Source of the DNA: Burkholderia sp. HI2500
GTDB lineage: Bacteria > Pseudomonadota > Gammaproteobacteria > Burkholderiales > Burkholderiaceae
Direction: 5' to 3'
DNA: 64,000 bases
Assembly (NCBI RefSeq): GCF_002223055.1
Contig: NZ_NKFL01000007.1
Span: forward strand, 744,001-808,000
The translations under genes were made by a program, and so were the position numbers. Each line of letters begins with the position of its first letter. The stretch's first letter is position 1. Below, piece by piece: positions 16,446-64,000 of the stretch. The notes beneath the pieces were generated by a model that made no database searches, was not told the origin of the DNA, and saw only the letters and a list, made by a program, of their open reading frames with translations.

Positions 16446-16467
16446 CGCGCAGCTCCGGCCACCTGAC

Positions 16468-19481: not shown

Positions 19482-19507
19482 GGTAGACGACCTCGTGTTT
19501 TTGTTGG

Positions 19508-20704: not shown

Positions 20705-20737
20705 TTGCATGAATGAAAATGGATTTATTTCATGCAA
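20705..20737. promoter_or_regulatory. Long dyad between mesX and its LysR regulator
   Basis: TTGCATGAA (20705-20713) and its exact complement TTCATGCAA (20729-20737) flank a 15-bp AT-rich spacer. It lies 27 bp upstream of the LysR start and about 210 bp upstream of mesX, in the divergent promoter. It contains TGAA and TTCA elements like those in MetR sites, but with longer spacing. Best candidate binding site for the adjacent regulator. Confidence 0.6.
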
Positions 20738-20764
20738 CCATTAAATTTGTTCATGGAGTGGTCG

Positions 20765-43206: not shown

Positions 43207-44070
43207 CTATACAGCGTTCACCACGCCGTCCGTCACACGGAGCGTTCGCGCGGTCACTCCGCGGCGATAGCGGTTCAGCTCCTGCGCGGTCGCGAACGGG
43301 CGCTCGAACAGGATCGACAGGTTGTGCAGGATCCGCTCGACCACCTTCTGTTCCCATTCGCCGTCGAAGCGGATCTGCTCGTCGAGCCAGCGCTCGAGCC
43401 ATTCCGGATCGGGCAGGCGCGACTGCACGGTGTCGCGCGGGAACAGCGCCTGGTTCACGTGCAGGTTGGTCGGGTGCAACGGCTTCTCGGTGCGGCGCGC
43501 CGACGCCATCAGCACGCCGATCTTCGCGAATGCGGCACGCGCGACGTCGCCGCAGTCGTTCAGCGCCTTCTTCATGTAGCGCAGGTACGCGCCGCCGTGG
43601 CGTGCTTCATCGCGCGAGATCGTTTCGTAGATCTGCTTGATGACCGGCTCGGTGTGCCAGTCGGCCGCGCAACGGTACCAGTGGTTCAGGCGGATCTCGC
43701 CGCAGAAGTGCAGCATCAGCGTCTCGAGCGGCGGCGCCGGGTCGAATTCGAAGCGCACCGCGTGCAGTTCCGCTTCGGTCGGCACCATCGCCGGCTTGAA
43801 GCGGCGCAGGTATTCCATCAGCACGAGCGAATGCTTCTGTTCCTCGAAGAACCACACGCTCATGAAAGCGGAAAAGTCGCTGTCGTGCCGGTTGTCGCGC
43901 AGGAACATTTCCGTCGCGGGCAGCGCCGACCATTCGGTGATCGCGTTCATCCTGATCGTCTCGGCCTGCTCGTCGGTGAGCAGCGACGCGTCGAAGCGGT
44001 CCCACGGAATGTCCGTCTCCATGTCCCAGCGCACCGCTTCAAGCGACCTGAAAAGTTCCGGATAGAGCAT
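43207..44070 (-). CDS. Diiron acyl-ACP-desaturase-like protein (probable AfcB)
   Basis: 287 residues from ATG 44068-44070. It has a full carboxylate-bridged diiron set spaced as in soluble acyl-ACP desaturases: E46, E77 and H80 (FFEEQKH), E125 (CGEIRLNHWY), E155 and H158 (RDEARHGG). Such enzymes use O2 to desaturate or hydroxylate carrier-bound acyl chains in the cytoplasm; substrate here unknown. It is the second gene after the membrane desaturase, 46 bp downstream. From memory the Bcc literature names this pair afcA/afcB; I place afcB here by order, not proof. Confidence 0.82.
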   Translation of the reverse strand: MLYPELFRSLEAVRWDMETDIPWDRFDASLLTDEQAETIRMNAITEWSALPATEMFLRDNRHDSDFSAFMSVWFFEEQKHSLVLMEYLRRFKPAMVPTEAELHAVRFEFDPAPPLETLMLHFCGEIRLNHWYRCAADWHTEPVIKQIYETISRDEARHGGAYLRYMKKALNDCGDVARAAFAKIGVLMASARRTEKPLHPTNLHVNQALFPRDTVQSRLPDPEWLERWLDEQIRFDGEWEQKVVERILHNLSILFERPFATAQELNRYRRGVTARTLRVTDGVVNAV

Positions 44071-44116
44071 CGTCGTCACCGTCGTTGAAAGGCATTCGGG
44101 CCCGGCACCGGCCCGG

Positions 44117-45112
44117 TCATGCCGATTGCGTGGACGCCGGCGCCGCCGCTTCGGCATCGGTTGCGCGGTCGTCCGCATCGTCGTCCACCGTGCGCGGCGA
44201 GAGCCTGCCGCGCAGCAGCGCGTAATAGAACTGCCGGTAGGTGCGGTGGTAATAGCGGATGCGCGGCCCGATCGCGCCATGCAGATCGTGCAGCCGCTCG
44301 ATCGGCAGGTTCGGCATCATGTGATGCTCGACGTGATAGTTGTTGCCGTTCGTGAACCACGTCATGAATGCATTGCTCTCGATCGTCCGCGTGTTGCGGA
44401 ACGGATCGGTGCTCGTCAGGTCGCAGCGGTAATGCTCGGGCATCTCAACCAGCGCATGCACGGGCGCGGCCACGAACACGAGCGGCACGACCCACACCCA
44501 CACGACGAACCACGTGTGCAGCGCGATCGACACACCGGCCAGCAGCGCGATCGTCGCGACCATCAGCAGGTGATCGCGGCGGATCGCGCGCGACACGAGC
44601 GGGTTGTCGCCGAAGCGTGCGCCCGGCACGACGAGCTTCGCGACGTTCTTCGCGAACTGGATATAGTGCGCGGCCATCGACAGCCGCCACGCCCACAGGC
44701 CGAGATTCACGACGGGGCGCGCGCCGTACTGGTCGCCGTAGTCGAAGAACTCCTTGTTCTCGGGCGTGCCGAGCAGCCGGTGATGGCGCAGGTGGCTGTC
44801 CTGGTACGCATGAAACGACACGAGCATCGGCATGCCGAGCAGCACGCCGAACACCATGTTGAGCCGCTTGCTCCTGAATCCCTGGTAATGCAGCGCCTGA
44901 TGCTGCAGCTCGACCCCGTGCGCGTACATCGCGCCGATCAGCAGGATGCCGACGATCTTCAGGACCACGACCGTCGACAGCGCGAACAGCATGCCATGCG
45001 CGATGAGTGCGACGTAGACCGCGAGCTTCAGCGAGAAGACGACGCCGCTCGGGCGGCTCTTCATGTCTGCAACCGGTTTCTGACGGGCGAGAAGCGATGA
45101 GGTGACGGACAA
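44117..45112 (-). CDS. Membrane fatty acid desaturase (probable AfcA)
   Basis: 331 residues from TTG 45110-45112, preferred because AAGGAG lies six bases before it; the ATG at 45064 has no ribosome site. Four or more helices and the three His boxes of membrane desaturases: HGVELQHQALH, SHLRHHRLLG and NNYHVEHHMMP. The diiron site adds a double bond, or a hydroxyl, to an acyl chain with O2. First gene of the leftward afc operon, divergent from the acyl-AMP ligase across a 370-bp promoter with a dyad. Fatty acid desaturase-like AfcA is how I recall the Bcc protein. Confidence 0.87.
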   Translation of the reverse strand: MSVTSSLLARQKPVADMKSRPSGVVFSLKLAVYVALIAHGMLFALSTVVVLKIVGILLIGAMYAHGVELQHQALHYQGFRSKRLNMVFGVLLGMPMLVSFHAYQDSHLRHHRLLGTPENKEFFDYGDQYGARPVVNLGLWAWRLSMAAHYIQFAKNVAKLVVPGARFGDNPLVSRAIRRDHLLMVATIALLAGVSIALHTWFVVWVWVVPLVFVAAPVHALVEMPEHYRCDLTSTDPFRNTRTIESNAFMTWFTNGNNYHVEHHMMPNLPIERLHDLHGAIGPRIRYYHRTYRQFYYALLRGRLSPRTVDDDADDRATDAEAAAPASTQSA

Positions 45113-45482
45113 AATGCTCTCCTTGGCCGGACCCTGCCCGGCACGATGACGCGGCGACACTGGCGCGCTGCCGGGTTGCAATTCTTCTGTGAGTCGATGC
45201 TTCGGACAAACGAATTTTCCGAACGCATTGCATGACGCCCGCGCATGAGCGCACCACATCGTGAACTAGACGACCGGTCGAATGCGTACCGACCATTCAC
45301 CTCGCACGGGCTCGCGCGTATACACACATGGCAGTGCCGAGTGGATGCGTGCTGCTCATGCATAGCCTGCAAATATTCCGTTTGTCGCGTCATGTCGATC
45401 CGGCAAGAATCCCCCTCACTCGACGAACGGCGCCGCCGGCACCGTGGCGCGAGCGGCCGTGTTCCTCAAGGGGAGAATCCTC
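45113..45482. promoter_or_regulatory. Divergent afc promoter region
   Basis: 370 bp between the leftward desaturase gene and the rightward ligase operon. It must contain both promoters and carries the perfect TTCGGA-N11-TCCGAA dyad at 45201-45223. No gene is seen inside. Confidence 0.7.
45201..45223. promoter_or_regulatory. Perfect dyad in the divergent afc promoter, candidate ShvR operator
   Basis: TTCGGA (45201-45206), 11-bp spacer, TCCGAA (45218-45223): a perfect inverted repeat with LysR-type spacing. It is about 90 bp from the desaturase start and 260 bp from the ligase start. A related site lies upstream of shvR. Confidence 0.6.
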
Positions 45483-47246: not shown

Positions 47247-47953
47247 CGACCGCCACGCTCACGCCGGTGCTCGAACTGCGCGACGTCTCGCGCGTGTACG
47301 AGGGCGCGGGCCGCGTCGTCGCGGTGCGCGGCGCGACGATCTCGATCGGCCGACGCGACGTCGTCGCGCTCGTCGGCCCGTCGGGCAGCGGCAAGAGCAC
47401 GTTGCTCAACCTGGCCGGCTTTCTCGACGTGCCGAGCAGCGGCGAACGCTGGCTCGAAGGCCGCCGGATCGACGATGCGCCGGACACACTCGAACGGATT
47501 CGCCGCGAGCGCATCGGCTTCGTGTTCCAGCAGTTCAACCTGATTCCGGTGATGTCGGCGCTCGAAAACGTCGAGCTCGGCTGCTTCGCATGGGGCACGC
47601 CGCGCACGCGCCGCGAGCGCGCCCGCGCGATGCTCGACGCGGTGGGGCTCGCCGCGCGCGAACGTCATCGCCCCGGCGAGCTGTCCGGCGGCGAGCAGCA
47701 ACGCGTTGCACTGGCGCGCGCACTCGCCAAGGAACCGGCGATCGTGATCGCGGACGAGCCGACCGCCAGCCTCGACAGCACCAACGCACGGGCAGTGGCC
47801 GAGCTGATCCTCGACACCAACCGCACGCTGGGCACCGCCTTTCTGATTGCGTCGCACGACGATCGTCTGTGCGCGCACCTGCCGCGCCGCATCGAGATGC
47901 GCGACGGCGTACCGGGAGTGAATCGTGAACTGGTCGACGTTTGCGTGGCGTAA
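47243..47953 (+). CDS. LolD/MacB-type ABC transporter ATPase (probable AfcD)
   Basis: 236 residues. Walker [20 protein letters not shown]-loop FVFQQFNLIP, signature LSGGEQQRVALARAL, Walker B IVIADEPTASLD and H-loop IASHDDRL. The subfamily powers FtsX-fold permeases that move lipids or lipoproteins out of the inner membrane (Lol, MacB). The permease gene begins inside its 3' end (29-bp overlap), and a LolA-like protein follows, so the three make one transport unit. Confidence 0.92.
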   Translation: MTTATLTPVLELRDVSRVYEGAGRVVAVRGATISIGRRDVVALVGPSGSGKSTLLNLAGFLDVPSSGERWLEGRRIDDAPDTLERIRRERIGFVFQQFNLIPVMSALENVELGCFAWGTPRTRRERARAMLDAVGLAARERHRPGELSGGEQQRVALARALAKEPAIVIADEPTASLDSTNARAVAELILDTNRTLGTAFLIASHDDRLCAHLPRRIEMRDGVPGVNRELVDVCVA

Positions 47954-49142
47954 CCTCTGGCGCAACAAGCGCCGCACCGTGCTGACGATGGCGATGATCG
48001 GCGTCGCCGCGTTCGCGTCGAGCCTCGCGCTCGGCTACGTGATCGCGACCTTCGATGCGGTGCGCGAAGGATCGATCGACAGCGGCGTCGGCCACGTGCA
48101 GGTGCTGCACCACGGCTATCTCGACCTGATCGGCGAACGTCCGCTGCAGTACGGGCTCACCGCCGACGAGCAGGCCACCGCCACGCACGCGATCGCGGCG
48201 CTGCCCGGCGTCGCGACCACCGCGCGCGGCATCGACTTCGACGGGTTGATCTCGAACGGCGATCTCAGTTACGGCTTCGTCGGCGAAGGCATCGAGCCGA
48301 ACCGCGAGCCGCCCGGCTTCTTCGACTATCACACGGTGCTGTCGGGCCGTTACCTGTCGCCGACGAATCCCGGCACCGAAGTCGTCGTCGGCGCCGAACT
48401 CGCGCGCAAGCTCGGCGTGCACGTCGGCTCGGTCGTGCAGTTGATGGCGTCGACCGCGCACGGCGGCATCAACGCGACCGACGCGCAGATCGTCGGCGTG
48501 ATGAGCACCGGCAACAAGGACGTCGACGAGCGGATCGTCAACGTGACGTTCACGGCCGCACAGGCGCTGCTGCGCACCGACCGGGCGTCGCGCATCGCGG
48601 TGTTCCTGTCGGACACCGCGCACACGCCGGCCGCCGCCGCGTCGCTGCGCGCCGCGCTGCCGACGCTCGACGTGAAGACCTGGGACCAGCTCGTGTCGCT
48701 CTATCACCAGGTCGTCGCGCTGTACAAGAACCAGTTCTCGGTGTTCGGCGCGATTCTCTGCCTGACCATCCTGCTGTCGATGAGCAACTGGATCCTGATG
48801 AGCATCGTCGAACGCCGCCGCGAGATCTCGACCCTGCGCGCGCTCGGCGTGCCGGCCGCGACGGTGCGCGGCGTGCTGATCCAGGAGACCGCCTTCCTCG
48901 GCCTGCTGGGCGCCGCCGCCGGCATCGCGGTGGCGCTGCTGACGATGGTCGCGCTCAATCACGCACAGATCCACCTGCCGCCGCCGCCGGGGCGCGTGAA
49001 GTCGATCCTGCTCGAATTCACGGTCTCGCCGGCCGCCGTGGCCGCCGTCGAAGGCGCGTTCGTCGTGCTCGGGGTGGCCGCCGCGCTGCTCGCGACGCTC
49101 GGCCTCGCCAAACGCAACATCCTCGAAGGACTCGCCCCATGA
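47925..49142 (+). CDS. FtsX/LolE-family ABC permease
   Basis: 405 residues from GTG 47925. One N-terminal helix (about 19-40), a large periplasmic MacB-PCD-like domain (about 45-265) and a C-terminal FtsX domain with three helices (about 275-300, 325-355, 370-395) including MSIVERRREISTLRALGVPAATVRGVLI. A single permease gene implies a homodimer. It probably extracts a lipid or the afc product from the inner membrane and hands it to the LolA-like protein. Overlaps the next gene by 4 bp. Confidence 0.9.
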   Translation: MNWSTFAWRNLWRNKRRTVLTMAMIGVAAFASSLALGYVIATFDAVREGSIDSGVGHVQVLHHGYLDLIGERPLQYGLTADEQATATHAIAALPGVATTARGIDFDGLISNGDLSYGFVGEGIEPNREPPGFFDYHTVLSGRYLSPTNPGTEVVVGAELARKLGVHVGSVVQLMASTAHGGINATDAQIVGVMSTGNKDVDERIVNVTFTAAQALLRTDRASRIAVFLSDTAHTPAAAASLRAALPTLDVKTWDQLVSLYHQVVALYKNQFSVFGAILCLTILLSMSNWILMSIVERRREISTLRALGVPAATVRGVLIQETAFLGLLGAAAGIAVALLTMVALNHAQIHLPPPPGRVKSILLEFTVSPAAVAAVEGAFVVLGVAAALLATLGLAKRNILEGLAP

Positions 49143-49879
49143 TTCGCATTCGCCACCTGGCTGCCGCGCTCGTCGCGTGCACGCCGCTCGTGCATGCCGC
49201 CGACGCCCCGACGGCCCAGACCATGCTTGCCCGTGCCGACGCATACCGCAGCACGGCCGCCGATACGCAGACGAACATCCAGATCACGAACGAAGTCGGC
49301 GGGCAGTCCGGCGACGCGACACGCTATCTCGTCTATACGCGCGGCAACGGCGACACGCTCGCGCTGACGCGCAGCGGCGAGAACGACGGCCAGAAATACC
49401 TCGCAACGACGCGCGGCCACTGGTTCTACGTGCCGAACACGCGCAGCGCGGTCCGCATCAACGGGATGCAGCGGCTACAGGGCGAGGTCGTGATCAGCGA
49501 CATCACGCGCACGCACTGGGCGGACAGCTATCACGCATCGGCCGCGCCGGGCGCGACGACGATCGCCGGCAAGCCGGCCACCGAGCTCGATCTGACCGCG
49601 ACCGATCCCGACAACGTCTACCCGACGATCAAGCTGTGGGTCACGCCCGATACCGACGTACCGGTGCGCGCGCAGTTCTTCCTCGCGAGCGGCCTGCTGT
49701 TCCGCAGCGCCGATTTCTCCGCGCCGGTCGATGCGAACGGGCGCAAGGTGATCCGCAAGATCACGTATCGCAACGAGATCGAAAAGCAGCGCGCGAGCGT
49801 CGTCGACATCCTCGACGGCCAGCCGCGCAAGATTCCGTCGGGCTGGTTCAATCCCGACACGCTTGCCGATGGCCAGTGA
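49139..49879 (+). CDS. Periplasmic LolA-like (outer-membrane lipoprotein-sorting) protein
   Basis: 246 residues with a Sec signal peptide (MIRIRHLAAALVACTPLVHA). The half-barrel LolA-like fold is suggested by TQTNIQITNEVGG, GDTLALTRSGENDGQKYLATTRGHWFYVP, VISDITRTHWADSY and FFLASGLLFRSADFS. Members of this family carry hydrophobic ligands across the periplasm. Encoded between a LolE-like permease and an outer-membrane barrel, so it is the likely shuttle. Confidence 0.83.
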   Translation: MIRIRHLAAALVACTPLVHAADAPTAQTMLARADAYRSTAADTQTNIQITNEVGGQSGDATRYLVYTRGNGDTLALTRSGENDGQKYLATTRGHWFYVPNTRSAVRINGMQRLQGEVVISDITRTHWADSYHASAAPGATTIAGKPATELDLTATDPDNVYPTIKLWVTPDTDVPVRAQFFLASGLLFRSADFSAPVDANGRKVIRKITYRNEIEKQRASVVDILDGQPRKIPSGWFNPDTLADGQ

Positions 49880-51188
49880 CAACAACGCCCATGTCGACGC
49901 CCATCGTGACCGCCGCCTTCCATCATCCGGCCGACTCTGGCCCGCCGCCGCGCTCGCCGTCCCGCTTGCGCTCGGCTGCACGCTCGCGCACGGAGAATCG
50001 CTGATGGAACAGTTGAGCACGCTGAACGGCATCGCATACGCACGCACCGTCGACAGCATGGACGGGCACGCGCTGTTAGGCAACCTGATCGGCGACCAGC
50101 CGCGCAACCTGCAGGAAGCGGGCCTGCTCGCGCGCATCGACGGCGAGAACCTGTTCATGAACGCCCGTGCCGTGGCCAGCAACCACTCGCTCGGCGCGCA
50201 GGCCACCCGCTTCAACGAGGCCGGCGTGCGCTACGCATTCGACAACGGCATCACGCTCACCGCCGGCAAGCGGATCGATCCGCTCGATACGTCGCAGGCG
50301 TTCTTCCCGCTCGGCTTCTTCCAGAAGCGGGCCGCGACGGCCGACATCTACGACCGCTACGGCGACGTCGAAGGCACGCCGCTCGTCGAAGCGAAATGGG
50401 CCGGCGAACAGACCACGCTGCAGTTCATCGCCGGGGAAAACCGCACGCTGCGCAGCGACGTCGACAACCGCGACGTGCAGGGCGCGACGCAGCTCGTGCG
50501 CGGTGCGTACAACTGGTCGGGCGGCTCGGCCGCGTTGCTCGCCGGCCGGCATGCGGGCCATGGCGGCGCCGGTGCGACGCTGTCGTTCGACGTCGCGCGC
50601 TCGAACACCGTCTATGCAAGCGCGTGGCTCGAGCGCGGCACGACACGGCCATTGCCTGCGTTCATCGCGAACGGCACGCCGCTCGATTCCCCGGCCGCGT
50701 ACGACGCGGTCGATCGCCGCAACGATCGCCAAGTCATGTGGCGCAGCGCGGTCGGCATGCAGAGCGCACTGCCCGGCAACTTCTCGCTGATCGTCGAGTG
50801 GTCGCACGACGAGGCGCGCTACGACGCGAACCAGTGGCGCCAGATGGTCGGCGCGGTCCGCGTGAACAACGCGCTCCTGCCCGTCGCGCCCGGCGCGGCG
50901 CTGGGCGGCCTCGGCGGCACGGCCGATTTCGTGAGCGTCGACGGCAACCTGCGCGACTACCTGTTCGCGCGGCTCGGCAAGAAGATCGGCCGCGTCGAGT
51001 ATTCGCTGCGCGGCGTCTATTCGCCGCAGGACAAGGGCCTGCTCGCGATCGCGCAGGTCGTCGCCGACGTGAACAAGCGCGTGAGCGTCGACGTCGCGGT
51101 CACCCGCGCGTTCTCCGACAGCAATTCCGAGTACCGGATGGTCGGTCTCGGCACCCGTATCGACGCCGCCGTGCGCGTGCGCTTCTGA
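49869..51188 (+). CDS. Outer-membrane beta-barrel protein
   Basis: 439 residues from ATG 49869 (an in-frame TTG at 49863 is possible); its start overlaps the LolA-like gene. A twin-charged start leads to a hydrophobic segment (about 22-42, ending AHGES). The body alternates short polar and aromatic strands (FNEAGVRYAFDNGITLTAGKRID, SLIVEWSHDEARYD, GRVEYSLRGVYS), and the chain ends DAAVRVRF with the C-terminal phenylalanine used by the BAM machinery. Family not recognised. It could be the outer-membrane exit or acceptor of the pathway. Confidence 0.75.
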   Translation: MASDNNAHVDAHRDRRLPSSGRLWPAAALAVPLALGCTLAHGESLMEQLSTLNGIAYARTVDSMDGHALLGNLIGDQPRNLQEAGLLARIDGENLFMNARAVASNHSLGAQATRFNEAGVRYAFDNGITLTAGKRIDPLDTSQAFFPLGFFQKRAATADIYDRYGDVEGTPLVEAKWAGEQTTLQFIAGENRTLRSDVDNRDVQGATQLVRGAYNWSGGSAALLAGRHAGHGGAGATLSFDVARSNTVYASAWLERGTTRPLPAFIANGTPLDSPAAYDAVDRRNDRQVMWRSAVGMQSALPGNFSLIVEWSHDEARYDANQWRQMVGAVRVNNALLPVAPGAALGGLGGTADFVSVDGNLRDYLFARLGKKIGRVEYSLRGVYSPQDKGLLAIAQVVADVNKRVSVDVAVTRAFSDSNSEYRMVGLGTRIDAAVRVRF

Positions 51189-51203
51189 CAGGAACCCTGC
51201 CCC

Positions 51204-52313: not shown

Positions 52314-52371
52314 CCCACGCGACAGGCCGATCGATCCCGATCAACCCACTTCATTATCAGGAGCTCCTCTC

Positions 52372-52626
52372 ATGACGACCCAGAACGTTCCGGCCGACGC
52401 GCTCGACATCCTGTCCCGCGAAGTCGCGAAGATCCTCAACGTCGAGACCGTCGACACCGACGCCGGCATCGGCGAACTCGGCATCGATTCGCTGAACATC
52501 GTCGAGCTGATCGTGTTCTGCGAACAGCTCTACGGTTCGATCGACCCGGAAGCGCTGAACATCACGCAGTACACGACGCTGCAGCAGCTCGACGCGCAAC
52601 TGCGCCGCCAGCAGCACGCCGCCTGA
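52372..52626 (+). CDS. Acyl carrier protein
   Basis: 84 residues, acidic four-helix carrier. The phosphopantetheine attachment serine is S40 in ELGIDSLNIVELIV. AGGAG lies upstream of the ATG. It is the only carrier protein in the window, so acyl chains loaded by the FAAL and modified by the desaturase, diiron and condensing enzymes probably ride on it. Confidence 0.93.
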   Translation: MTTQNVPADALDILSREVAKILNVETVDTDAGIGELGIDSLNIVELIVFCEQLYGSIDPEALNITQYTTLQQLDAQLRRQQHAA

Positions 52627-52633
52627 CACGACG

Positions 52634-53518: not shown

Positions 53519-53519
53519 C

Positions 53520-54143: not shown

Positions 54144-54144
54144 A

Positions 54145-55128: not shown

Positions 55129-55131
55129 ACC

Positions 55132-56115: not shown

Positions 56116-57280
56116 GCGCCCGCTTCCGCCCGCCGGCGACCACGCGTGGATCGCCGACCTGCGCACGCCGTGCTACGTGTACGAGCCGGAGGTCGCGATC
56201 GCGCGCTACCGGTCGCTGAAGGCGCGGCTCGGCACGCGGCTGATCGTGTCGCTGAAGGCGAACCCGAACCAGGACATGCTCGCGCGCTGCGCGCATGCGT
56301 ACGAGGATGGCGTCGAACTCGCGAGCCGCGGCGAACTCGATGCGGTGATCGGCCGGATCAAGACGCCGCGCTACCTGAACAACCCGTCGATGGACGAGAT
56401 GTTCATGCGCGCCGGGCTCGCGTCGCGCTGCCATTTCGTGCTCGACAACCCGGACGCGGTCGCGCGCTTCGTGCCGCTGGCGCGCGAGGCGGCGGCCGGC
56501 GGCAGCACGCCGGGCGCCGTGCTGCTGCGCGTGAACGCCGGCGCGCTGGCCGGCGACGAGGCGCGCGCGCTGTGGCACGACCACTTCGGGATGACGCCGA
56601 ACGAGGCGCACGACGCGGTGCGTACGCTCGCCGCTGCCGGTTTGCCGGTGGCCGGGCTGCACGTGTTCTCCGGCCCGCATTCGTTCATCCGCCAGGACGC
56701 GACGCAGCCCGACACACTCGTGCTGCCCGAGCGGCTCGCGGCGCTCGCCCGCGATCTCGCCCCCGCCAACGGCGCGCCGCTCACGTCGCTGAGTCTCGGC
56801 GGCGGTTTTGCCGACGATCACCCCGGCGACGCCGCGTTCGAACGCTATGCGACTGCGCTCGCGCCGCTGGCCGGCCAGTACGCGCTCGCGCATGAATCGG
56901 GCCGCGCGATCTTCGCGGATGCGGGCGTGTTCGCGACGCGCGTGGTTGCGGTCAAGACGTGGCAGGACCGCACGATCGCCGTCTGCGACGGCGGGCTGTC
57001 GCATGCGTTCCTGCTTGCGCAGACCGAATCGGTGATGCGCCGGCTGGCCGCGCCGTCGCTCGTGCGCCACAAGCCCGCACCGTCGGAGCGTGGCGTACCG
57101 ACGATCTATGTCGGCAGCACCTGCAGCCGCGCGGACGTGATCGGCCGCGACGACACGGGTGCGCCGCCGCAGGTCGGCGACATCGCCGTGTTCGCGCGCT
57201 GCGGCGCGTATCACCGCACGTACTCGATGGCGCATTTCCTGTCCCACGAAGCCGCGCACGTGTACGTGCGGCCTGCCTAG
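56105..57280 (+). CDS. PLP-dependent amino acid decarboxylase (Orn/DAP type III fold)
   Basis: 391 residues. Alanine-racemase-like barrel with PLP lysine K51 in LIVSLKANPNQ, then GVELASRGELDAVIG, LHVFSGPHSF, LSLGGGFADD, YVGSTCSRADVIGRD (substrate-site loop) and GAYHRTYSMAHFLSH. The type resembles the pyridoxal decarboxylase found beside acyl-CoA ligases in exosortase A loci. The next gene is just such a ligase. It may supply an amine or act on a carrier-bound amino acid. Confidence 0.87.
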   Translation: MTPERPLPPAGDHAWIADLRTPCYVYEPEVAIARYRSLKARLGTRLIVSLKANPNQDMLARCAHAYEDGVELASRGELDAVIGRIKTPRYLNNPSMDEMFMRAGLASRCHFVLDNPDAVARFVPLAREAAAGGSTPGAVLLRVNAGALAGDEARALWHDHFGMTPNEAHDAVRTLAAAGLPVAGLHVFSGPHSFIRQDATQPDTLVLPERLAALARDLAPANGAPLTSLSLGGGFADDHPGDAAFERYATALAPLAGQYALAHESGRAIFADAGVFATRVVAVKTWQDRTIAVCDGGLSHAFLLAQTESVMRRLAAPSLVRHKPAPSERGVPTIYVGSTCSRADVIGRDDTGAPPQVGDIAVFARCGAYHRTYSMAHFLSHEAAHVYVRPA

Positions 57281-57304
57281 ACCCACCTGAGAGAGAAGCC
57301 GATC

Positions 57305-58879
57305 ATGAACGCCCTGATCAGCGTCGCCGACCTGCTCGAACACGGCGCCGCACGCTGGCCGCAGCATCCCGCGTATGCCGACGGCGGCGGCGCGATGACC
57401 TACGAACAGCTTGCGCGCGCGGTCCGCCGCGCGGCCGCCGCGCTCGCGTCGCGCGGCGTGCAGCCCGGCGAGCGCGTCGCCATCTACGCGCCGAAACGCA
57501 TCGAAACCGTGGTCGCGATGCTCGCGGCCAACGCGCTCGGCGCGATCTTCGTGCCGGTCAATCCGCAGTTGAAGGAAGCGCAGATCGAACACATCGTCAC
57601 CGACAGCGGCGCGGCGCTGTTCATGACCGGCGCGCAGCGGTTGAAGCGCCTGCCGGCGCTCGCCGCGCTCGTCGGCGAACGCGCGATGCTGATCGAGGAA
57701 CTGGCCGACGCGATCCACGCAGTCGGCACCGACACACCTGCTCCGCTTCCCGCCGGCCGGCCGGTGGACGACGATCCCGCCGCGCTGCTCTACACGTCCG
57801 GCTCGACCGGCAAGCCGAAAGGCGTGGTCGTGTCGCATCGCAACCTCGTGTCGGGCGCATTCAGCGTCGCCGCGTACCAGGGGCTGGCCGACGACGACGT
57901 CGTGCTCGGCGTGCTGCCGCTCAGCTTCGACGCGGGCCTGAGCCAGCTCACGACCGCGCTGGCCGCCGGCGCGTGCTATGCGCCGCTCGACTTCCTGCAG
58001 CCGGCCGAAGTGCCGCGCCATTGCGACGCGTTCGGCGTGACGTCGATCACCGGCGTGCCGCCGTTGTGGATGCAGCTCGCGTCCGCCGGCTGGAGCGACA
58101 CGGCGCGCACGCGGATCCGCCGCTTCGCGAACACCGGCGGCCATCTGGCGACGCCATTGCTGCACCGCCTGCAGGCGGTGTTCACGAACGCCGCGCCGTA
58201 CCTGATGTACGGGCTGACCGAAGCATTCCGCTCGACCTACCTGCCGCCGGCCGACGCGGCACTGCGCCCGACGTCGATCGGCAAGGCCGTACCGAACGCC
58301 GAGATCCTCGTGCTGCGCGCGGACGGCAGCGAATGCGCGGCCGACGAACCCGGCGAACTCGTGCATCGCGGCGCGTTCGTCACGCTCGGCTACTGGAACC
58401 GGCCCGAGCTGACCGCGCAGCGCTTTCGCCCGCTGCCGCGCCGGCACGGCGAGATCCCGCGCGCCGACGTCGCCGTGTGGTCGGGCGACATCGTGCGGCG
58501 CGACGCGGACGGCTACCTGTATTTCGTCGCGCGCGGCGACGACATGATCAAGACGTCCGGCTATCGCGTGAGCCCGACCGAGGTCGAGGACGTGCTGTTC
58601 GCGCTGCCCCACATCCGCGAGGCCGCGGTGTTCGGCGTGCCGCACGCATCGCTCGGCGAGGCGATCGCCGCGTGCGTCGTGTCGACGCTCGACGCCGAAG
58701 CATGCCGCGCCGACATCGCACGCGCCTGCCGCGACGCGTTGCCGACCTACATGAGCCCGCTCGTCGTCGAGCCGCTGCCGGCGTTGCCGCGCAACCCGAA
58801 CGGCAAGATCGACCGCCCCGCGCTGAAAAACCAGTATCGCGACGCGTTCGCGCCCACGAACGAGGAGACCGCCGCATGA
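57305..58879 (+). CDS. AMP-forming acyl/amino-acyl ligase, exosortase-A-locus type
   Basis: 524 residues. All adenylate-forming motifs: LLYTSGSTGKPKGVVVSH, LMYGLTEAFRSTYLPP, WSGDIVRRDADGYLYFVARGDDMIKTSGYRVSPTEVED and the catalytic lysine in LPRNPNGKIDR. The N-terminus (VAIYAPKRIETVVAMLAANALGAIFVPVNPQLK) recalls the exosortase A-associated acyl-CoA ligase family. Different from the FAAL at 45483, so two adenylating enzymes feed this pathway. Stop overlaps the next start (ATGA). Confidence 0.9.
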   Translation: MNALISVADLLEHGAARWPQHPAYADGGGAMTYEQLARAVRRAAAALASRGVQPGERVAIYAPKRIETVVAMLAANALGAIFVPVNPQLKEAQIEHIVTDSGAALFMTGAQRLKRLPALAALVGERAMLIEELADAIHAVGTDTPAPLPAGRPVDDDPAALLYTSGSTGKPKGVVVSHRNLVSGAFSVAAYQGLADDDVVLGVLPLSFDAGLSQLTTALAAGACYAPLDFLQPAEVPRHCDAFGVTSITGVPPLWMQLASAGWSDTARTRIRRFANTGGHLATPLLHRLQAVFTNAAPYLMYGLTEAFRSTYLPPADAALRPTSIGKAVPNAEILVLRADGSECAADEPGELVHRGAFVTLGYWNRPELTAQRFRPLPRRHGEIPRADVAVWSGDIVRRDADGYLYFVARGDDMIKTSGYRVSPTEVEDVLFALPHIREAAVFGVPHASLGEAIAACVVSTLDAEACRADIARACRDALPTYMSPLVVEPLPALPRNPNGKIDRPALKNQYRDAFAPTNEETAA

Positions 58880-59967
58880 CCCTGTCGACGCTCGATGAAA
58901 CCTGCCTCGGCGCGCGCCGCATCGCCGAGCCCGGCACGCTGGCCCTGTCGGGCGGCGTCGTGGTGCTGCCGCCGTCGGTCGTGTTCAGCGCGATCCAGGC
59001 GCAGGAACGCCATCCCGGCTACCGGCATCTGCTGCTGCCGCAGGCACGCTTTGCGCGGCCGCGCGGAATGGGCGCGCTGACGCCCGACGAAGGCACGCGC
59101 CTCGCGCCGGGCGGCCGGCCCACGCTGCGTGTCGCGCCGCCCGGGCGCAGCCTCGCCGATCTCGCCGCCGACGCGGCACTCGACCTGCGCGACCAACTGG
59201 GCTCCGGGCAACTGGCGCGCACGACCCACGTGATCGTCGCGAGTTGCGCGCTCAACGAAGGGATCGGCGACTCGGTCGTCGGCCGCATGCAGTACGAGCT
59301 CGGGCTGCAGCGCGTGACGCCCTTCGCGCTCGGCCAGAACGGCACGCTCGGCTGGTATTCGGCGCTGATGCTGCTCGACGGGCTCCTCGACGAAGGCGAC
59401 CAGGCGCTCGTGATCCTCAGCGACAAGTGGCTCTACCCGTTCTTCCGCCAGTTCGGCGACCTGGTCGGCTACGGCGACGCGGCCGCCGCGCTGCTCGTGT
59501 CGCGCGCCGGCCCGGCGCCCGAGCCGGCGGACTGGGGCGGCGTGCGGTCCGTCGCGATGGAATTCGGGCCGTCGATCGCCGATCCGTGGGCCGACGCACC
59601 CGGCGCATTGCGCGACACGCTCGCACCGGTCGCCGCGCGTGCGATCCGCCGCGCACTCGACCTGGCCGGGCTGCGCGCCGGTGAAATCGACTGGTGCGTG
59701 CCGCCCGGCTTCGATCCCGGCTTCGCGGCGCGCGTGGCCGACGCCGCGTCGATCCCGGTCGCCGCCCGCATCCAGCATGAAGCGGCCGGCCACCTGTCGT
59801 CGGCCGAATCCGCGGCCGCGCTGATCCGGCTCGCCGGCGCGCTCGACGAAGGCGAACGCCGCACGGTGCTCGTGTGGGACGCGGCACTGCATGGCGCGGC
59901 GGCGGCGGCCGTCGTCGACCTCGCCGGCGGCCTCGATGCCGCGCTCGATATCGAAGGAGACGCGTAA
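58876..59967 (+). CDS. KASIII-like protein lacking the active-site cysteine
   Basis: 363 residues. Thiolase-fold elements are present (RSLADLAADAALDLRDQLG, THVIVASCALNEGIGDSVV, FALGQNGTLGWYSALMLLDG, GYGDAAAALLVS, HEAAGHLSSAESAAALI). Where KASIII has its catalytic cysteine this protein reads GQNGTLG (about 153-159), and the usual histidine and asparagine motifs are replaced by CVPPGFD and AAGHLSS. Probably not a standard condensing enzyme; a structural partner or altered chemistry. The stop overlaps the next ATG by 1 base. Confidence 0.75.
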   Translation: MTLSTLDETCLGARRIAEPGTLALSGGVVVLPPSVVFSAIQAQERHPGYRHLLLPQARFARPRGMGALTPDEGTRLAPGGRPTLRVAPPGRSLADLAADAALDLRDQLGSGQLARTTHVIVASCALNEGIGDSVVGRMQYELGLQRVTPFALGQNGTLGWYSALMLLDGLLDEGDQALVILSDKWLYPFFRQFGDLVGYGDAAAALLVSRAGPAPEPADWGGVRSVAMEFGPSIADPWADAPGALRDTLAPVAARAIRRALDLAGLRAGEIDWCVPPGFDPGFAARVADAASIPVAARIQHEAAGHLSSAESAAALIRLAGALDEGERRTVLVWDAALHGAAAAAVVDLAGGLDAALDIEGDA

Positions 59968-61817
59968 TGAGCGCCTACAAGGTGAGCCTGCGCGAACTGC
60001 GCTTCTTTCTGTGGGAACTGTTCGAAGCCGACAAGCGGTTCCTCGCGGAACACGGCCTGTACGGCACGCATGACCGCGCATCGATCGACGCGCTGCTCGA
60101 ACGCGCACGCGATTTCGCGCTCGACCTCGGGCGCAGCTACCAGCAGGCGGACGTCGAGGGCTGCACGCTGCTCGACGACGGCCAGGTGCGCATTCCGTCG
60201 CATTTCCACGCGCTGTGGGCACGGTTTCGCGACGAATGGTCGAACACGCTGTTCGGCACCGCGCACGGGCTGCCGCCGATCGTCACGCAGATGATCTACG
60301 AGATGTTCATGGGCGCGAACCCGTCGTTCATGACGTACGGCGGCTTCACGCGCCCCGCGATCAAGCTGCTGCAGATGCACGGCACGCCGCTCCAGAAGGC
60401 GCTGATCGCGCCGCTCGAGGCGTACCGCTGGGATGCCTGCTTCTGCGCGACCGAACCGCAGGCCGGCACCGACCTCACCGCGGTCGCGCTGCGCGCGACA
60501 CCGCTCGAACGCGACCTCTACGCGATCGACGGCGAGAAGGTCTACATCTCGGCCGGCATGCACGAGTTGACCGAGAACACGCTGTATTTCGTGCTCGGCC
60601 GCATCGACACCGCGTCGCCGGACTCGTTCTCGCTGTCGTGCCTCGTCGTGCCGCGCTTCTGGCCGGACGAGGAAACGGGCGAGCTGCAGTCGAACCATGT
60701 CGACTGCATCGGCCTGCCGCGCAAGATGGGGCTCAAGGGCTGCGCGAACACGCATCTCGTGTTCGGTTCGAACGGCACGACCAAGGGCTGGCTGCTCGGC
60801 GGCCGGCGCAACGTCGGCCTGCTGCAGCTGATGCCGCTGATGAACCAGGCGCGGATGAGCACCGGGATGTTCGGCGTCGGCGTCGCGTCGAGCGCGTACC
60901 TGCATGCGGTCGAGTATGCGGGCCGCCGGCTGCAGGGCCGGCCGATCGAGCGCGCGTCGAACACCCACGCGGCCCGCGTCGCGATCGTCGAGCACGCGGA
61001 CGTGCAGCGCATGCTGGTCGACATGAAAAGCCGTGTCGACGGCTGCCGCGGCCTGCTCGGCAAGCTCGCCGCGACCGCCACGCGCGCGGCGATGCTCGAA
61101 GCGACGCCCGACGCCGACCCGGCCGAGATCGAGCGCCACCGCAAGCTGCAACTGCTGCTGACGCCGATCTGCAAGGCGTTCATCTCCGACCAGGCGTGGC
61201 GGATCTGCGAAACCGCGATCCAGGTGCACGGCGGGCTCGGCTATACCGATGCGAGCCCCGTCGAGCAGAACGCGCGCGATGTGAAGATCCTGTCGATCTG
61301 GGAAGGCACGAACTACATCCAGGCGCAGGACCTCGTGCGCGACAAGCTCGGCTTCGGCCACCATTCGCGGCTGATCCAGTACTACCGCGACGAACTCGAC
61401 GTGTTCCTCGCGCGCCAGCATCACACCGGCACGCATGCGGAGCTGCGCCCGCTGTTCGATGCGCTGCGCACCGGCGCCGACCGGATCGCCACCGCGCTCG
61501 ACGACATCGCGCGCGACGTGCAGGACGGTCACACGCACCGCAGCAGCCAGTTCTACACGCGCTTTCTCGAGATGTTCGGCGTCGTCACGTCGGCGTGGGT
61601 GCTGCTCGAATCGGCGACGATCGCCGCGCGCCGGCTCGACGCGCCGGACACCGCCGACACGCCGGCCGAACTCGCGTTCTATCGCGGCAAGCTGAAAAGC
61701 GCGCGCTACTACTTCGCGAACGTGCTGCCCGTGGTCGACCAGCACGCGGCCGTGATCGCCTCGATGGCGCATGCGGCGATCAGCGTCAGCAGCGACGAAC
61801 TCGCGCAGGTGGAATGA
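59967..61817 (+). CDS. Acyl-CoA dehydrogenase (probable AfcE)
   Basis: 616 residues, the long form of the family. Visible blocks: FCATEPQAGTDLTAVALRATPL (flavin site), YISAGMHELTENTLYFVLGRID, LGLKGCANTHLVFGSNG-like middle (start GLPRKMG), CETAIQVHGGLGYTDASPVEQNARDVKILSIWEGTNYIQAQDL (FAD-binding C-terminal motif) and a helical tail to the end. It introduces an alpha,beta double bond in an acyl thioester using FAD. I recall afcE as an acyl-CoA dehydrogenase gene of this cluster whose loss alters lipid profile and membrane shape. Confidence 0.9.
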   Translation: MSAYKVSLRELRFFLWELFEADKRFLAEHGLYGTHDRASIDALLERARDFALDLGRSYQQADVEGCTLLDDGQVRIPSHFHALWARFRDEWSNTLFGTAHGLPPIVTQMIYEMFMGANPSFMTYGGFTRPAIKLLQMHGTPLQKALIAPLEAYRWDACFCATEPQAGTDLTAVALRATPLERDLYAIDGEKVYISAGMHELTENTLYFVLGRIDTASPDSFSLSCLVVPRFWPDEETGELQSNHVDCIGLPRKMGLKGCANTHLVFGSNGTTKGWLLGGRRNVGLLQLMPLMNQARMSTGMFGVGVASSAYLHAVEYAGRRLQGRPIERASNTHAARVAIVEHADVQRMLVDMKSRVDGCRGLLGKLAATATRAAMLEATPDADPAEIERHRKLQLLLTPICKAFISDQAWRICETAIQVHGGLGYTDASPVEQNARDVKILSIWEGTNYIQAQDLVRDKLGFGHHSRLIQYYRDELDVFLARQHHTGTHAELRPLFDALRTGADRIATALDDIARDVQDGHTHRSSQFYTRFLEMFGVVTSAWVLLESATIAARRLDAPDTADTPAELAFYRGKLKSARYYFANVLPVVDQHAAVIASMAHAAISVSSDELAQVE

Positions 61818-61818
61818 C

Positions 61819-63075
61819 ATGGATACGACATTCGATTCCGGTACGACCGCTGCGACCGCCACGACCACCTCGGCCGGCGACGCGCCGCGCAACCTGCTCG
61901 GCCGCCCCGCGACCCGCCATCGCGGCACCGACATCGACGGCGCGACGCTCGAACCCGAAGCGCTGCGCGTGCGCGATCTCGATCTGAACGCGCTGATTGG
62001 CGCAACGACGTTCGAAGGCGCGCTCGCGCACCTGTGGTTCGACGTCGCGCCCGGCAGCGCCGCGCATCGCGCACACGAAGCGGCCATCGGCGCGCGGCTC
62101 GCGGCGTTCGCCGATGCACTGGCGCCCGGGAGTGCCGCGCAATCCGTCGCCGCGGATCTCGGCGCGGCGGGTGTCGCGCCGGTGTTCGCGGCAGCGTCCG
62201 GCCTGCTGCGCGGCTTCGACGACGTGACGGCCCGCATGCACGGCGACGCGCCGGACGACGCCGACCTCGACACGATGCTGCTGTGCGCGGCCGCCGCGCC
62301 GTTCCTGCTGCACGCGGCGATCGAAGGCCGCCCGTTTGCCGCACGCCACGACTCGATCGGCGCATCGCTCGCCGGCACGTCGAACCAGGCGCAACGCATG
62401 CTCGTGCTGACCGGCGCGACGCGCACCGATGCGCCGGCGCAAGCCGCGATGGACATGCTGCTCGTCGCATGGCACGCGGGCTTCGGCTACATCACGCCGA
62501 CCGTGCTCGCACCGCGGGTCGCGATCGGCACCGGTGTCACGCTCACGCAGGCGATCGCGTCCGGTTTCCTCGCAAGCGGGCCGTCGCACGTCGGTGCGGC
62601 GCTCGAAGCGATGCAGTGGCTCGCCGCGCTCGCGCAGTCGGTGCCGGGCGGCACCGGCGCACCGCCTGCCGCGCTCGACGCAACCGGGCGCGCAGCGATC
62701 GACGCCACGCTCGACGCGAAACGCACGCTGTACGGCTTCGGCCATCCGCTGTTCGTCGCCGACCCGCGTCCGCCGCACATGCGCGCGCGGTTCGCGGCGC
62801 GAGGCTTCGACGGCGCTTACGTGACGCTGTTCGACGCGTGCTGCGCGCAGGCCGATGCCCGCCGCTCGCTTCGGCCGAACATCGATTTCCTGACGGCCGC
62901 GACGCTGCTCGAACTCGGTGTCGCCGCGCCGTCGTGGGGCGTCGGCGTCGGGCTCGGCGCGCGCATCGCGGCGATGGCCGCGCATGCGGTCGAGCGGCGT
63001 GGCCGCCCGGCTTTCGGCGTCAACAGCGCGACCGCGCGACGGCTGCTGGCCGCCGTGCCGGTCGGCTGGCTGTGA
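61819..63075 (+). CDS. Citrate synthase-like protein
   Basis: 418 residues from ATG 61819. Citrate synthase fold with the three catalytic positions visible: His in SGPSHVGAALEAM, His in YGFGHPLFVADPRPPHMR and Asp in LRPNIDFLTAATLLELG. The middle is typical (SLAGTSNQAQRMLVLTGATRTDAPAQAAMDMLLVAW, VTLTQAIASGFLAS). Not a housekeeping enzyme: it lies inside a biosynthetic operon and has a shortened N-terminal region. It may condense an acyl thioester with oxaloacetate or a related alpha-keto acid. Confidence 0.82.
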   Translation: MDTTFDSGTTAATATTTSAGDAPRNLLGRPATRHRGTDIDGATLEPEALRVRDLDLNALIGATTFEGALAHLWFDVAPGSAAHRAHEAAIGARLAAFADALAPGSAAQSVAADLGAAGVAPVFAAASGLLRGFDDVTARMHGDAPDDADLDTMLLCAAAAPFLLHAAIEGRPFAARHDSIGASLAGTSNQAQRMLVLTGATRTDAPAQAAMDMLLVAWHAGFGYITPTVLAPRVAIGTGVTLTQAIASGFLASGPSHVGAALEAMQWLAALAQSVPGGTGAPPAALDATGRAAIDATLDAKRTLYGFGHPLFVADPRPPHMRARFAARGFDGAYVTLFDACCAQADARRSLRPNIDFLTAATLLELGVAAPSWGVGVGLGARIAAMAAHAVERRGRPAFGVNSATARRLLAAVPVGWL

Positions 63076-63110
63076 ACCCTCATCCCTCCGCACTCCGCAC
63101 AAGGACCGTC

Positions 63111-63773
63111 ATGCTGCTCAAGAACCTGCGCCCGGCGAACGACTACGATCGCTTCGCCACCGAAACGCTCGAACCGTGGGACCTGCTGTTCATCAGCCGC
63201 ATCCGCCAGCTCGCACGCGGGATGACGCCCGGCGTGATCGCCGACATCGGCACGGCCACCGGCGTCGTGCCGGTGCGGCTCGCGACCGACCCGGCGATGC
63301 GCGGCTGGCGCTACGTCGGCATCGACCTCGATCCGGCGATGCTCGACGAAGGCCGCCCGCGCATCCACGAACTCGACCTCGACGACACGATCGAGATGCG
63401 CGTCGGCGATGCGCTGGCACTCCCGTTCGACGACGGCACGCTGACGATGGCCGTCGGCCGCGCGACGCTGCACCACCTGCCGAACAAGGCATTGAGCCTC
63501 ACCGAGATGTATCGCGTGCTGGAGCCGGGCGGCATCGCGCTCGTGCACGACATGCGCCGCGACGCGCCGCAGCACCTGCTCGACCGCTTCACCGAGATGC
63601 GCGCCGCCGCCGACTATCCGCCGACCCACGTCGAGGAAAAGATCACGCTCGACGAAGCGCATGCGCTCGTCGCCGAAGCCGGTCTCGCGGCAGTCGCGTC
63701 GATCTACAGCCCGAGCGCCGGGCTCGGCGCGCTCGGCTTCGAGATCCTGCTGAAGAAACCGGCGCTGGCCTGA
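63111..63773 (+). CDS. SAM-dependent class I methyltransferase
   Basis: 220 residues. Motif I VIADIGTATGVVPVRLA, acidic loop YVGIDLDPAML, motif II ALPFDDGTLTMAVGRATLHHLPN, then MYRVLEPGGIALVHDMRRDAP. Typical methyltransferase_11 fold. It probably O-, N- or C-methylates the pathway product. The start has only a weak AAGGA site 6 bp upstream. It lies 35 bp after the citrate synthase-like gene. Confidence 0.88.
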   Translation: MLLKNLRPANDYDRFATETLEPWDLLFISRIRQLARGMTPGVIADIGTATGVVPVRLATDPAMRGWRYVGIDLDPAMLDEGRPRIHELDLDDTIEMRVGDALALPFDDGTLTMAVGRATLHHLPNKALSLTEMYRVLEPGGIALVHDMRRDAPQHLLDRFTEMRAAADYPPTHVEEKITLDEAHALVAEAGLAAVASIYSPSAGLGALGFEILLKKPALA

Positions 63774-63776
63774 GTG

Positions 63777-64000
63777 ATGACCGACCTCGCCTTCCTCGCC
63801 GCGCACGCCGCCGCGCGGCTCGGCGCCGACGACGTGCACTGCGCGGCGGTCGCGCCCGGCGCGACGCTGCCGCTGTGCGTGACGCCGCGCAGCGCCGAAC
63901 TCGCGACCTCGCCGGAGATGTTCGTCGCGTGGTACCGCTCGCGGCTCGACACGATCGACACGCTGCTCGATGCGTGCGGCGCGCTGCTGTGGCGCGGCTT
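63777..64000 (+). CDS. TauD/SyrP-like dioxygenase, N-terminal part (runs off the right edge)
   Basis: 74 residues present. The pattern SPEMFVAWYRSRLDTIDTLLDACGALLWRGF is the usual opening of the TauD/TfdA and SyrP group of Fe(II)/2-oxoglutarate oxygenases, where the iron-ligand HxD would come later, outside the window. It starts 3 bp after the methyltransferase stop. It would add a third oxygen-using step after the desaturase and two diiron proteins. Confidence 0.6.
   Translation, partial: MTDLAFLAAHAAARLGADDVHCAAVAPGATLPLCVTPRSAELATSPEMFVAWYRSRLDTIDTLLDACGALLWRG

What the first reader, a model, noticed from the sequence alone, without database searches (positions are those of the whole stretch)
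43207..64000. A long afc-type cluster combining two AMP ligases, one carrier protein, three O2-using enzyme classes and a citrate synthase-like enzyme
The sequence directly shows the gene set and the tight, overlapping arrangement. The combination (FAAL plus ACP, membrane desaturase, two different diiron proteins, a KASIII, a PLP decarboxylase, a second ligase, an acyl-CoA dehydrogenase, a citrate synthase homologue, a methyltransferase and a TauD-like start) matches no well-known pathway I can name. From memory, afc genes of the Bcc are linked to an antifungal, lipopeptide-like activity, but I know of no settled structure. No NRPS or modular PKS is seen here, so the product is probably assembled on the single small ACP.
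Basis: partly seen in the sequence, partly recalled or inferred. Interest (0 to 1): 0.85.

Follow-up and report, generated by a model that had tools for sequence, protein, structure and literature searches.

The report
Known antifungal lipopeptide (AFC-BC11) gene cluster
This stretch of a Burkholderia genome is the known afc gene cluster for the antifungal lipopeptide AFC-BC11, whose structure and core chemistry were published in 2025; comparing it with relatives suggests how its odd citrate-like tail may be built and that some relatives may make a version with a different last amino acid.

Summary
It is the complete shvR-afc cluster of the Burkholderia cepacia complex: 24 afc genes plus shvR, in the same order as in B. 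cenocepacia NZ_CP091014, with 92% DNA identity over the 13.5 kb compared. It runs from 41.6 to about 69.0 kb, 5 kb past the window. It is an acyl tetrapeptide with a methylated malic-acid fatty tail, three dehydro-beta-alanines and a dehydro-lysine. So the window itself is already known. Two points go beyond what I read in print, both inference. (1) AfcU (TauD type), AfcF (2-hydroxyacid dehydrogenase type), AfcS (citrate-synthase type) and AfcT form a chemically consistent route from a succinyl to an O-methyl-citryl end. It fits the formulas reported for the afcS, afcF and afcT mutants, though rival models fit them too. (2) Related clusters fall into two types: those with AfcC (lysine desaturase), and those in Chromobacterium and two other lineages that lack an AfcC orthologue and carry a diaminobutyrate-type aminotransferase. 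The second type may make an analogue.

The parts
41600..42592 (-). shvR, LysR-type activator of afc
   Evidence: Pfam HTH_1 + LysR_substrate; 95% identical to the gene next to afc in NZ_CP091014; role from PMC6301696 passages
43207..44070 (-). afcD, diiron acyl-ACP desaturase-like
   Evidence: Pfam FA_desaturase_2 (30.0 bits, cut-off 22.7) and AurF just below cut-off; dispensable per PMC12186527; start codon chosen by me
44117..45064 (-). afcC, membrane diiron desaturase acting on the C-terminal Lys (per paper)
   Evidence: Pfam FA_desaturase; deletion phenotype in PMC12186527
45483..47246 (+). afcA, fatty acyl-AMP ligase
   Evidence: Pfam AMP-binding; FAAL activity in PMC12186527
47243..47953 (+). 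ABC-transporter ATPase (afcB by order; letter inferred)
   Evidence: Pfam ABC_tran
47925..49142 (+). MacB/FtsX-type permease (afcG by order; letter inferred)
   Evidence: Pfam MacB_PCD, FtsX
49139..49879 (+). LolA-like periplasmic protein (afcH by order; letter inferred)
   Evidence: Pfam LolA_like
49863..51188 (+). afcI by order, outer-membrane channel per paper
   Evidence: no Pfam hit; afcI dispensable per PMC12186527
51204..52313 (+). afcJ, acyl-CoA dehydrogenase-like, essential per paper
   Evidence: no Pfam hit; weak match to acyl-CoA dehydrogenases, E 0.03
52372..52626 (+). afcK, sole carrier protein, Ser40
   Evidence: Pfam PP-binding; Ser40 present as in paper
52634..53518 (+). afcL, KASIII-like peptidyl transferase, Cys111
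   Evidence: no Pfam hit; Cys111 present as in paper
53520..54143 (+). afcM, essential per paper, fold unclear
   Evidence: no Pfam hit; AlphaFold model mean pLDDT 66.1, no significant fold match
54145..55128 (+). afcN, diiron AurF-like oxygenase, essential per paper
   Evidence: Pfam AurF
55132..56115 (+). afcO, KASIII-like, Cys128
   Evidence: Pfam ACP_syn_III marginal; Cys128
56105..57280 (+). afcP, PLP-dependent Asp-thioester decarboxylase
   Evidence: Pfam Orn_DAP_Arg_deC / Orn_Arg_deC_N
57305..58879 (+). afcQ, stand-alone adenylation enzyme for L-Asp (VinN type per paper)
   Evidence: Pfam AMP-binding; Arg309/Lys501 correspond to Arg311/Lys503 of the paper, which L010 and L012 have at exactly 311/503
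58876..59967 (+). afcR, KASIII-like with Thr in place of Cys
   Evidence: GQNGT motif, Thr157; no Pfam hit
59967..61817 (+). afcE, acyl-CoA dehydrogenase type, dehydro-beta-alanine former (inferred from BolQ)
   Evidence: Pfam Acyl-CoA_dh domains; 81% to the gene at the bolQ position in G014
61819..63075 (+). afcS, citrate-synthase type
   Evidence: Pfam Citrate_synt; His257, His309, Asp356, Arg317, Arg382, Arg396 invariant in 8 of 8 aligned
63111..63773 (+). afcT, SAM O-methyltransferase
   Evidence: Pfam Methyltransf_11
63774..64000 (+). afcU, TauD-type Fe(II)/2-oxoglutarate oxygenase, first 227 bases; continues to 64850 outside the window
   Evidence: Pfam TauD; His127, Glu129, His341, Arg350 invariant in 7 of 7 aligned

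Best explanation
It is the shvR-afc cluster that makes AFC-BC11 (confidence 0.93, the value given below). Shown by others (PMC12186527, in vitro or by deletion): AfcQ adenylates L-Asp on its side-chain carboxyl and loads it on AfcK; AfcP decarboxylates it to beta-alanine; AfcQ repeats this directly on the amine, without a condensation domain; the FAAL AfcA acylates a (beta-Ala)3 chain with myristate; the KASIII-like AfcL moves (beta-Ala)3 onto Lys-CoA; AfcC is needed to desaturate the Lys and AfcT to O-methylate the tail. Inferred there: AfcE dehydrogenates the beta-alanines. Inferred by me (confidence about 0.45): the methylated malic-acid tail is built by a four-enzyme module working on a succinyl-type (C18:1 dicarboxyl) end. 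AfcU hydroxylates it next to the carboxyl, AfcF oxidises the 2-hydroxy acid to the 2-oxo acid, AfcS adds acetyl-CoA to the keto group by citrate-synthase chemistry, and AfcT methylates the new hydroxyl. Whether this happens on a C4 primer before fatty-acid extension or on the finished chain is left open.
For: Cluster identity: 92% DNA identity over all 13457 bases queried to two Bcc records. All 24 Afc proteins and ShvR match L040 in the same order, 88-99% identical in the best segment. The flanks are the published ones: alpha/beta hydrolase and MFS genes on one side, DctM, DctQ and DctP genes on the other, compared with the legend quoted. Diagnostic residues match the paper: AfcK Ser40, AfcL Cys111, AfcQ Arg311/Lys503 after a 2-residue offset. 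Tail module: the computed [M+H]+ of 646.3810 (succinyl end), 662.3760 (malyl end), 720.3814 (citryl end) and 734.3971 (O-methyl) equal the calculated values in the paper for the afcS and afcF mutants (646 and 662 in both), the afcT mutant and the wild type. AfcF's closest named solved relative is human D-2-hydroxyglutarate dehydrogenase (6lpn, E 7.7e-52; the top hit 3pm9 is only called putative oxidoreductase), and its GH-GDG-H and AEHG motifs are kept in the 6 of 6 loci where they could be read. If AfcS simply used free oxaloacetate, loss of AfcF should not give the same products as loss of AfcS. AfcU and AfcS occur in the same 21 of 65 genus genomes (at 56% and 60% identity or more). E-S-T-U lie side by side in the bol-type cluster of G014; the products share the tail and dehydro-beta-alanine (PMC7756342 passages; PMC12186527).
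Against: BolR, the AfcS counterpart, turned free oxaloacetate and acetyl-CoA into citrate in vitro (PMC7756342, passages), and AfcS keeps three arginines that I recall as oxaloacetate-binding, so citrate may be made as such. AfcA activated myristic acid but not a C14 diacid, which argues against a diacid being loaded. G036 has U, S and T but no AfcF orthologue in its cluster; its best relative elsewhere is 37% identical. PMC6301696 (passage) cites work in which afcF was needed for antifungal activity while the citrate synthase gene was dispensable, which does not sit easily with both acting in one short module. The substrate of AfcU cannot be read from sequence; its best solved matches are a clavaminate-synthase-like plant protein and an uncharacterised TauD-like protein. 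I found no afcU mutant in the main text. The mass fit is to formulas and also fits both rivals; the measured wild-type and afcT-mutant masses are 8.9 and 11.4 ppm off. Co-occurrence of neighbours in a conserved cluster is weak evidence for a joint step. No product of this genome was measured.
Confidence: 0.93

Rival explanations
1. The tail is made by priming: AfcS makes citryl-CoA (or its precursor), AfcO or AfcR starts fatty-acid synthesis with it, and the cell's own fatty-acid synthase extends it (the bolagladin proposal).
For: BolR makes citrate in vitro (PMC7756342 passages); KASIII-like O and R are conserved in the bol-type cluster G014; C20 = C6 primer + 7 C2 units and C18 = C4 primer + 7 C2 units fit the wild-type and afcS-mutant tails (formulas; the counting is mine).
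Against: It gives no role to AfcU and does not by itself explain why loss of AfcF gives the same products as loss of AfcS. It is compatible with my module if AfcU and AfcF act on the primer.
Confidence: 0.35
2. The tail is made late: a citryl-CoA precursor is joined to the terminal methyl of a myristoyl lipopeptide (the AFC-BC11 paper's proposal).
For: AfcA takes myristic acid and not C14 diacid in vitro (PMC12186527).
Against: It needs a C-C bond at an unactivated methyl group by no named enzyme, and separate couplings of C4 units to explain the 646 and 662 species.
Confidence: 0.2
3. The cluster in this genome is a variant making something other than AFC-BC11.
For: No metabolite was measured.
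Against: All 24 genes and the diagnostic residues are as in producers; AfcQ is 96% identical to that of B. puraquae, a species used for production in PMC12186527.
Confidence: 0.04

Closest known systems
afc cluster / AFC-BC11 of the B. cepacia complex (PMC12186527, main text parts 1-4; PMC6301696, passages)
   Same: All 24 afc genes plus shvR, order, flanking genes, diagnostic residues, 88-99% protein identity to B. cenocepacia NZ_CP091014
   Different: Nothing of substance seen; AfcQ is numbered two residues lower at the diagnostic positions than in B. cenocepacia L012
bol cluster / bolagladins of B. gladioli (PMC7756342, passages), here taken to be in G014
   Same: Shared A, K, N, F, D, O, P, Q, R, E, S, T, U and a ShvR-like regulator, 52-89% identical; shared tail and dehydro-beta-alanine
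   Different: bol has a multimodular NRPS; J, L, M, X, C and the afc exporter genes were not found in the 60 kb of G014 read
VinN/VinO-type beta-amino-acid starter pairs (likeness of AfcQ to VinN per PMC12186527)
   Same: AfcQ-AfcP pair; 14 of the 15 distant loci L021-L035 have an AfcP-like gene (22-28%) beside the AfcQ-like one; the 15th, L024, ends right after it
   Different: No other afc gene set in those loci

Membership tests
afc cluster (AFC-BC11) | 24 afc genes plus shvR in two divergent operons | tested here: met
   letters B, G, H, I, V, W, X assigned by order; the published map is a figure that I could not see
afc cluster (AFC-BC11) | Single carrier protein with Ser40; AfcL Cys111; AfcQ Arg311 and Lys503 | tested here: met
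   Ser40, Cys111; Arg309/Lys501 here, 311/503 in L010 and L012
afc cluster (AFC-BC11) | No condensation domain in the cluster | tested here: met
   Pfam scans of all 24 afc proteins
afc cluster (AFC-BC11) | Adjacent hydrolase and MFS genes on one side, C4-dicarboxylate transporter on the other | tested here: met
   published layout in the legend
afc cluster (AFC-BC11) | Location on the third replicon pC3 | not tested
   contig C7 is 1.2 Mb, which is compatible only
afc cluster (AFC-BC11) | Production of AFC-BC11, m/z 734.39 | not testable with these tools
   needs culture and LC-MS
bolagladin (bol) cluster | Tetramodular NRPS between the tailoring genes | tested here: not met
   no NRPS between 43207 and 68966

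The most novel reading that the evidence does not exclude
Two readings that the evidence does not exclude. (1) AfcU, AfcF, AfcS and AfcT are a dedicated succinyl-to-O-methylcitryl module shared by afc and bol, which would solve the tail step called enigmatic in 2025. (2) afc clusters form two sub-families. One has AfcC and ends in dehydro-lysine.
Probability: 0.4. Interest if true: 0.55.

Novelty: already known. Interest (0 to 1): 0.33.

Why it matters
The window's cluster is a further copy of a known one, so by itself it adds little. The comparison is useful because it gives a specific, cheap test (remove afcU and look for 646 without 662) of a part of AFC-BC11 biosynthesis that its discoverers left open. 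It also points to afc-type clusters in Chromobacterium, which I did not find in the papers searched and which may make a new analogue of a potent plant-disease antifungal.

Tried and rejected

Rows left out of the AfcC/aminotransferase count: G043 (only about 1 kb read beyond AfcF), G067/L020 (contig ends before AfcF; its 60% aminotransferase lies in another locus), G014 (bol type; AfcC homologue of 72% unlinked), and L007-L018 and others whose stretches end before or at AfcF.
Full report
WHAT IS THERE. Codon-position scoring, Pfam and reading of the frames give a compact set of genes from shvR (41600-42592, minus) through afcD and afcC (minus) and then a long plus-strand run from afcA (45483) to afcU, which the window cuts at 64000. 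The window is G000:C7:744001-808000 of an unnamed 8.26 Mb genome. The downstream stretch adds the rest of afcU, an ABC ATPase, an ABC-2 permease, a small membrane protein and a FAD oxidase, ending at about 68966 in window numbering, followed by DctM, DctQ and DctP transporter genes on the other strand. That makes 24 afc genes plus shvR, equal to the 25 genes that the 2025 paper gives for B. orbicola Mc0-3.

WHAT IT IS. Over the 13457 bases from afcA to afcQ the window is 92.3% identical to B. cenocepacia NZ_CP091014 and 92.2% to B. arboris NZ_CP101526. All 25 proteins match NZ_CP091014 (locus L040) in the same order, at 88-99% in the best segment. All eleven further Burkholderia loci (L007-L017) keep the order over the 21 genes that their length covers. 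AfcQ is 96% identical to that of B. puraquae, B. lata and B. metallica. The published flanks, a hydrolase and an MFS gene on one side and a C4-dicarboxylate transporter on the other (PMC6301696, legend seen), are present.

WHAT IS KNOWN ABOUT IT. I read parts 1-4 of 5 of the main text of PMC12186527, without figures or supplement. It gives the structure of AFC-BC11 (C36H55N5O11). It shows iterative L-Asp loading by AfcQ on AfcK, decarboxylation by AfcP, acylation by AfcA and transfer by AfcL to Lys-CoA in vitro, and Lys desaturation by AfcC and O-methylation by AfcT through deletions. It reports that deletion of afcS or of afcF gives the same two products, and it calls the tail chemistry enigmatic. 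The diagnostic residues named there are in the window: AfcK Ser40 and AfcL Cys111 exactly; AfcQ Arg311/Lys503 as Arg309/Lys501, and in L010 and L012 exactly at 311/503. PMC6301696 (passages) describes shvR-afc in 10 of 20 Bcc species and its link to virulence of B. cenocepacia. It also cites work in which BCAS0207, the citrate synthase, was dispensable for antifungal activity while afcF was needed. The first fits the 2025 finding that the afcS mutant still makes lipopeptides; the difference between the two genes does not fit easily with my reading below.

THE TAIL. I recomputed the masses. With the published peptide part, a C18:1 dicarboxylic acyl chain gives [M+H]+ 646.3810; its 2-hydroxy form 662.3760; the 2-oxo form plus one acetate 720.3814; the O-methyl form 734.3971. 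These equal the calculated values in the paper for the afcS and afcF mutants (646.3810 and 662.3760), the afcT mutant (720.3815) and the wild type (734.3971); the measured values are within 0.5 ppm for the first two and off by 11.4 and 8.9 ppm for the last two. The difference between 646 and 662 is one oxygen, which suggests a hydroxylation before the AfcF and AfcS steps. AfcU is the TauD-type oxygenase of the cluster: His127, Glu129, His341 and Arg350 are invariant in 7 of 7 aligned homologues, including the bol-type one (that these bind iron and 2-oxoglutarate is recalled). AfcF is of the D-2-hydroxyglutarate dehydrogenase kind. AfcS keeps His257, His309, Asp356 and three Arg in 8 of 8 (their roles are recalled; the alignment to 2-methylcitrate synthase is). 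The order AfcU, AfcF, AfcS, AfcT therefore gives each enzyme its usual chemistry, and loss of AfcF giving the same products as loss of AfcS is hard to explain if AfcS simply uses free oxaloacetate. Against this stand BolR's in vitro citrate formation (PMC7756342, passages), AfcA's preference for myristic acid, the antifungal difference just told, and G036, which has U, S and T but no close AfcF. The formulas alone also fit both published models. This part is inference.

SUBTRACTION AGAINST THE BOL TYPE. In the genus, AfcU (56% identity or more) and AfcS (60% or more) are found in the same 21 of 65 genomes. One of these, G014, has shvR-, A-, K-, N- and F-like genes, a large NRPS frame, then D, O, P, Q, R, E, S, T, U. 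This is the order of bolL-bolS as the text of PMC7756342 describes them, and the O- and R-like proteins have Ser and Thr at the active site as stated there for BolM and BolP. I therefore take it to be a bol cluster; AfcU would be BolT, whose function the passages I saw do not give. In the 60 kb of G014 read, no J, L, M, X, C or exporter genes were found. AFC-BC11 and bolagladins share the tail and dehydro-beta-alanine, so the shared genes should make those. J, L and M should serve what is special to AFC-BC11, namely the trimer and the lysine. This agrees with the paper's remark that AfcJ may be a second dehydrogenase.

TWO SUB-FAMILIES. Outside Burkholderia, three Chromobacterium loci keep the order A J K L M N O P Q R E S, and T U X F as far as the stretch goes, at 34-78% identity, with no B, G, H, I match. 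In a sample of 398 Burkholderiaceae genomes, 22 have AfcS at E 1e-40 or better, two of them outside the genus: G118 and G174. AfcC orthologues (63-100%) were found in G000, G007, G039, G043, G118 and L040, and unlinked in G014. G036, G174, G065 and G066 have no orthologue: best hits in the genome search 31% over part of the protein, 32%, 23% and none. Those four instead have an aminotransferase beside the cluster; the other three are 66-86% identical to that of G066, and all four score above the cut-off of the broad family TIGR00709 (diaminobutyrate--2-oxoglutarate transaminase family) but below those of the narrower models, so the substrate is not settled. No such gene lies in the 6.6-10.2 kb read after AfcF in G000, G007, G039, G118 or L040; G000 has a 55% relative about 80 kb further on. 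So in 9 of 9 loci that could be judged the two genes are complementary; the rows left out are told under Tried and rejected. An unrooted tree of six concatenated proteins from 13 loci sets Chromobacterium (3), G174 and G036 apart with support 1.000. It is thus one evolutionary split, not nine events. Position 107 of AfcL is Cys in the four AfcC-type loci compared and His or Asn in the five others. In G065 a distant membrane desaturase (Pfam FA_desaturase, 23% to AfcC) lies between AfcF and the aminotransferase; in G036 a 25% match lies beside it but has a stop codon in frame, and I left it so. A product ending in diaminobutyrate is a prediction only.

LITERATURE LIMITS. Searches for bolagladin, AFC-BC11, and Chromobacterium with afc terms and for AfcU, BolT and related terms (listing only its top 20) showed me no paper on the AfcU role or on afc clusters in Chromobacterium. 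Of the other papers named I saw passages only (PMC5964159, PMC7684528, PMC13291983). The library is open-licence PMC only.

VERDICT. The interest that remains lies in the two testable inferences.

Noticed in passing
L018, L019, L020 (Chromobacterium), G174:C2:1-25600, G036:C1:3489000-3509000: afc-type clusters outside the Bcc, with an adjacent diaminobutyrate-type aminotransferase and no AfcC orthologue in four of the five genomes (the fifth, L020, is cut before that point).
   Followed up: partly
L083/L084 (G015), L085/L086 (G027), L089/L090 (G018), L087 (G061): A separate pair of methyltransferase and citrate-synthase-like genes close together (32-38% to AfcT and AfcS). In G015 it sits with ketosynthase, SDR, MaoC-like, MATE and an ABC/LolA exporter: a possible other citrate-tailed lipid cluster.
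   Followed up: partly
NC_008826.1:210775-211550 (L138) and NZ_CP073678.1:1601494-1602235: AfcD relatives of 80-83% DNA identity on Methylibium and Cupriavidus plasmids; in Methylibium no afc-like gene names are annotated within 12 kb. This fits AfcD being dispensable for AFC-BC11.
   Followed up: partly
L021-L035: AfcQ-like plus AfcP-like gene pairs in marine gammaproteobacteria, actinobacteria and others (14 of 15 loci), without an afc gene set; products unknown.
   Followed up: no
window 16000-22000: Stretch of lower GC (0.56-0.62) against about 0.65-0.70 around it.
   Followed up: no
window 22873-27654: A 1593-residue YadA-type trimeric autotransporter adhesin gene.
   Followed up: no
window 3561-5606: A frame of 681 residues matching MoeA and, at its C-terminal end, a SUKH (SMI1/KNR4) domain, a pairing I do not know.
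   Followed up: no
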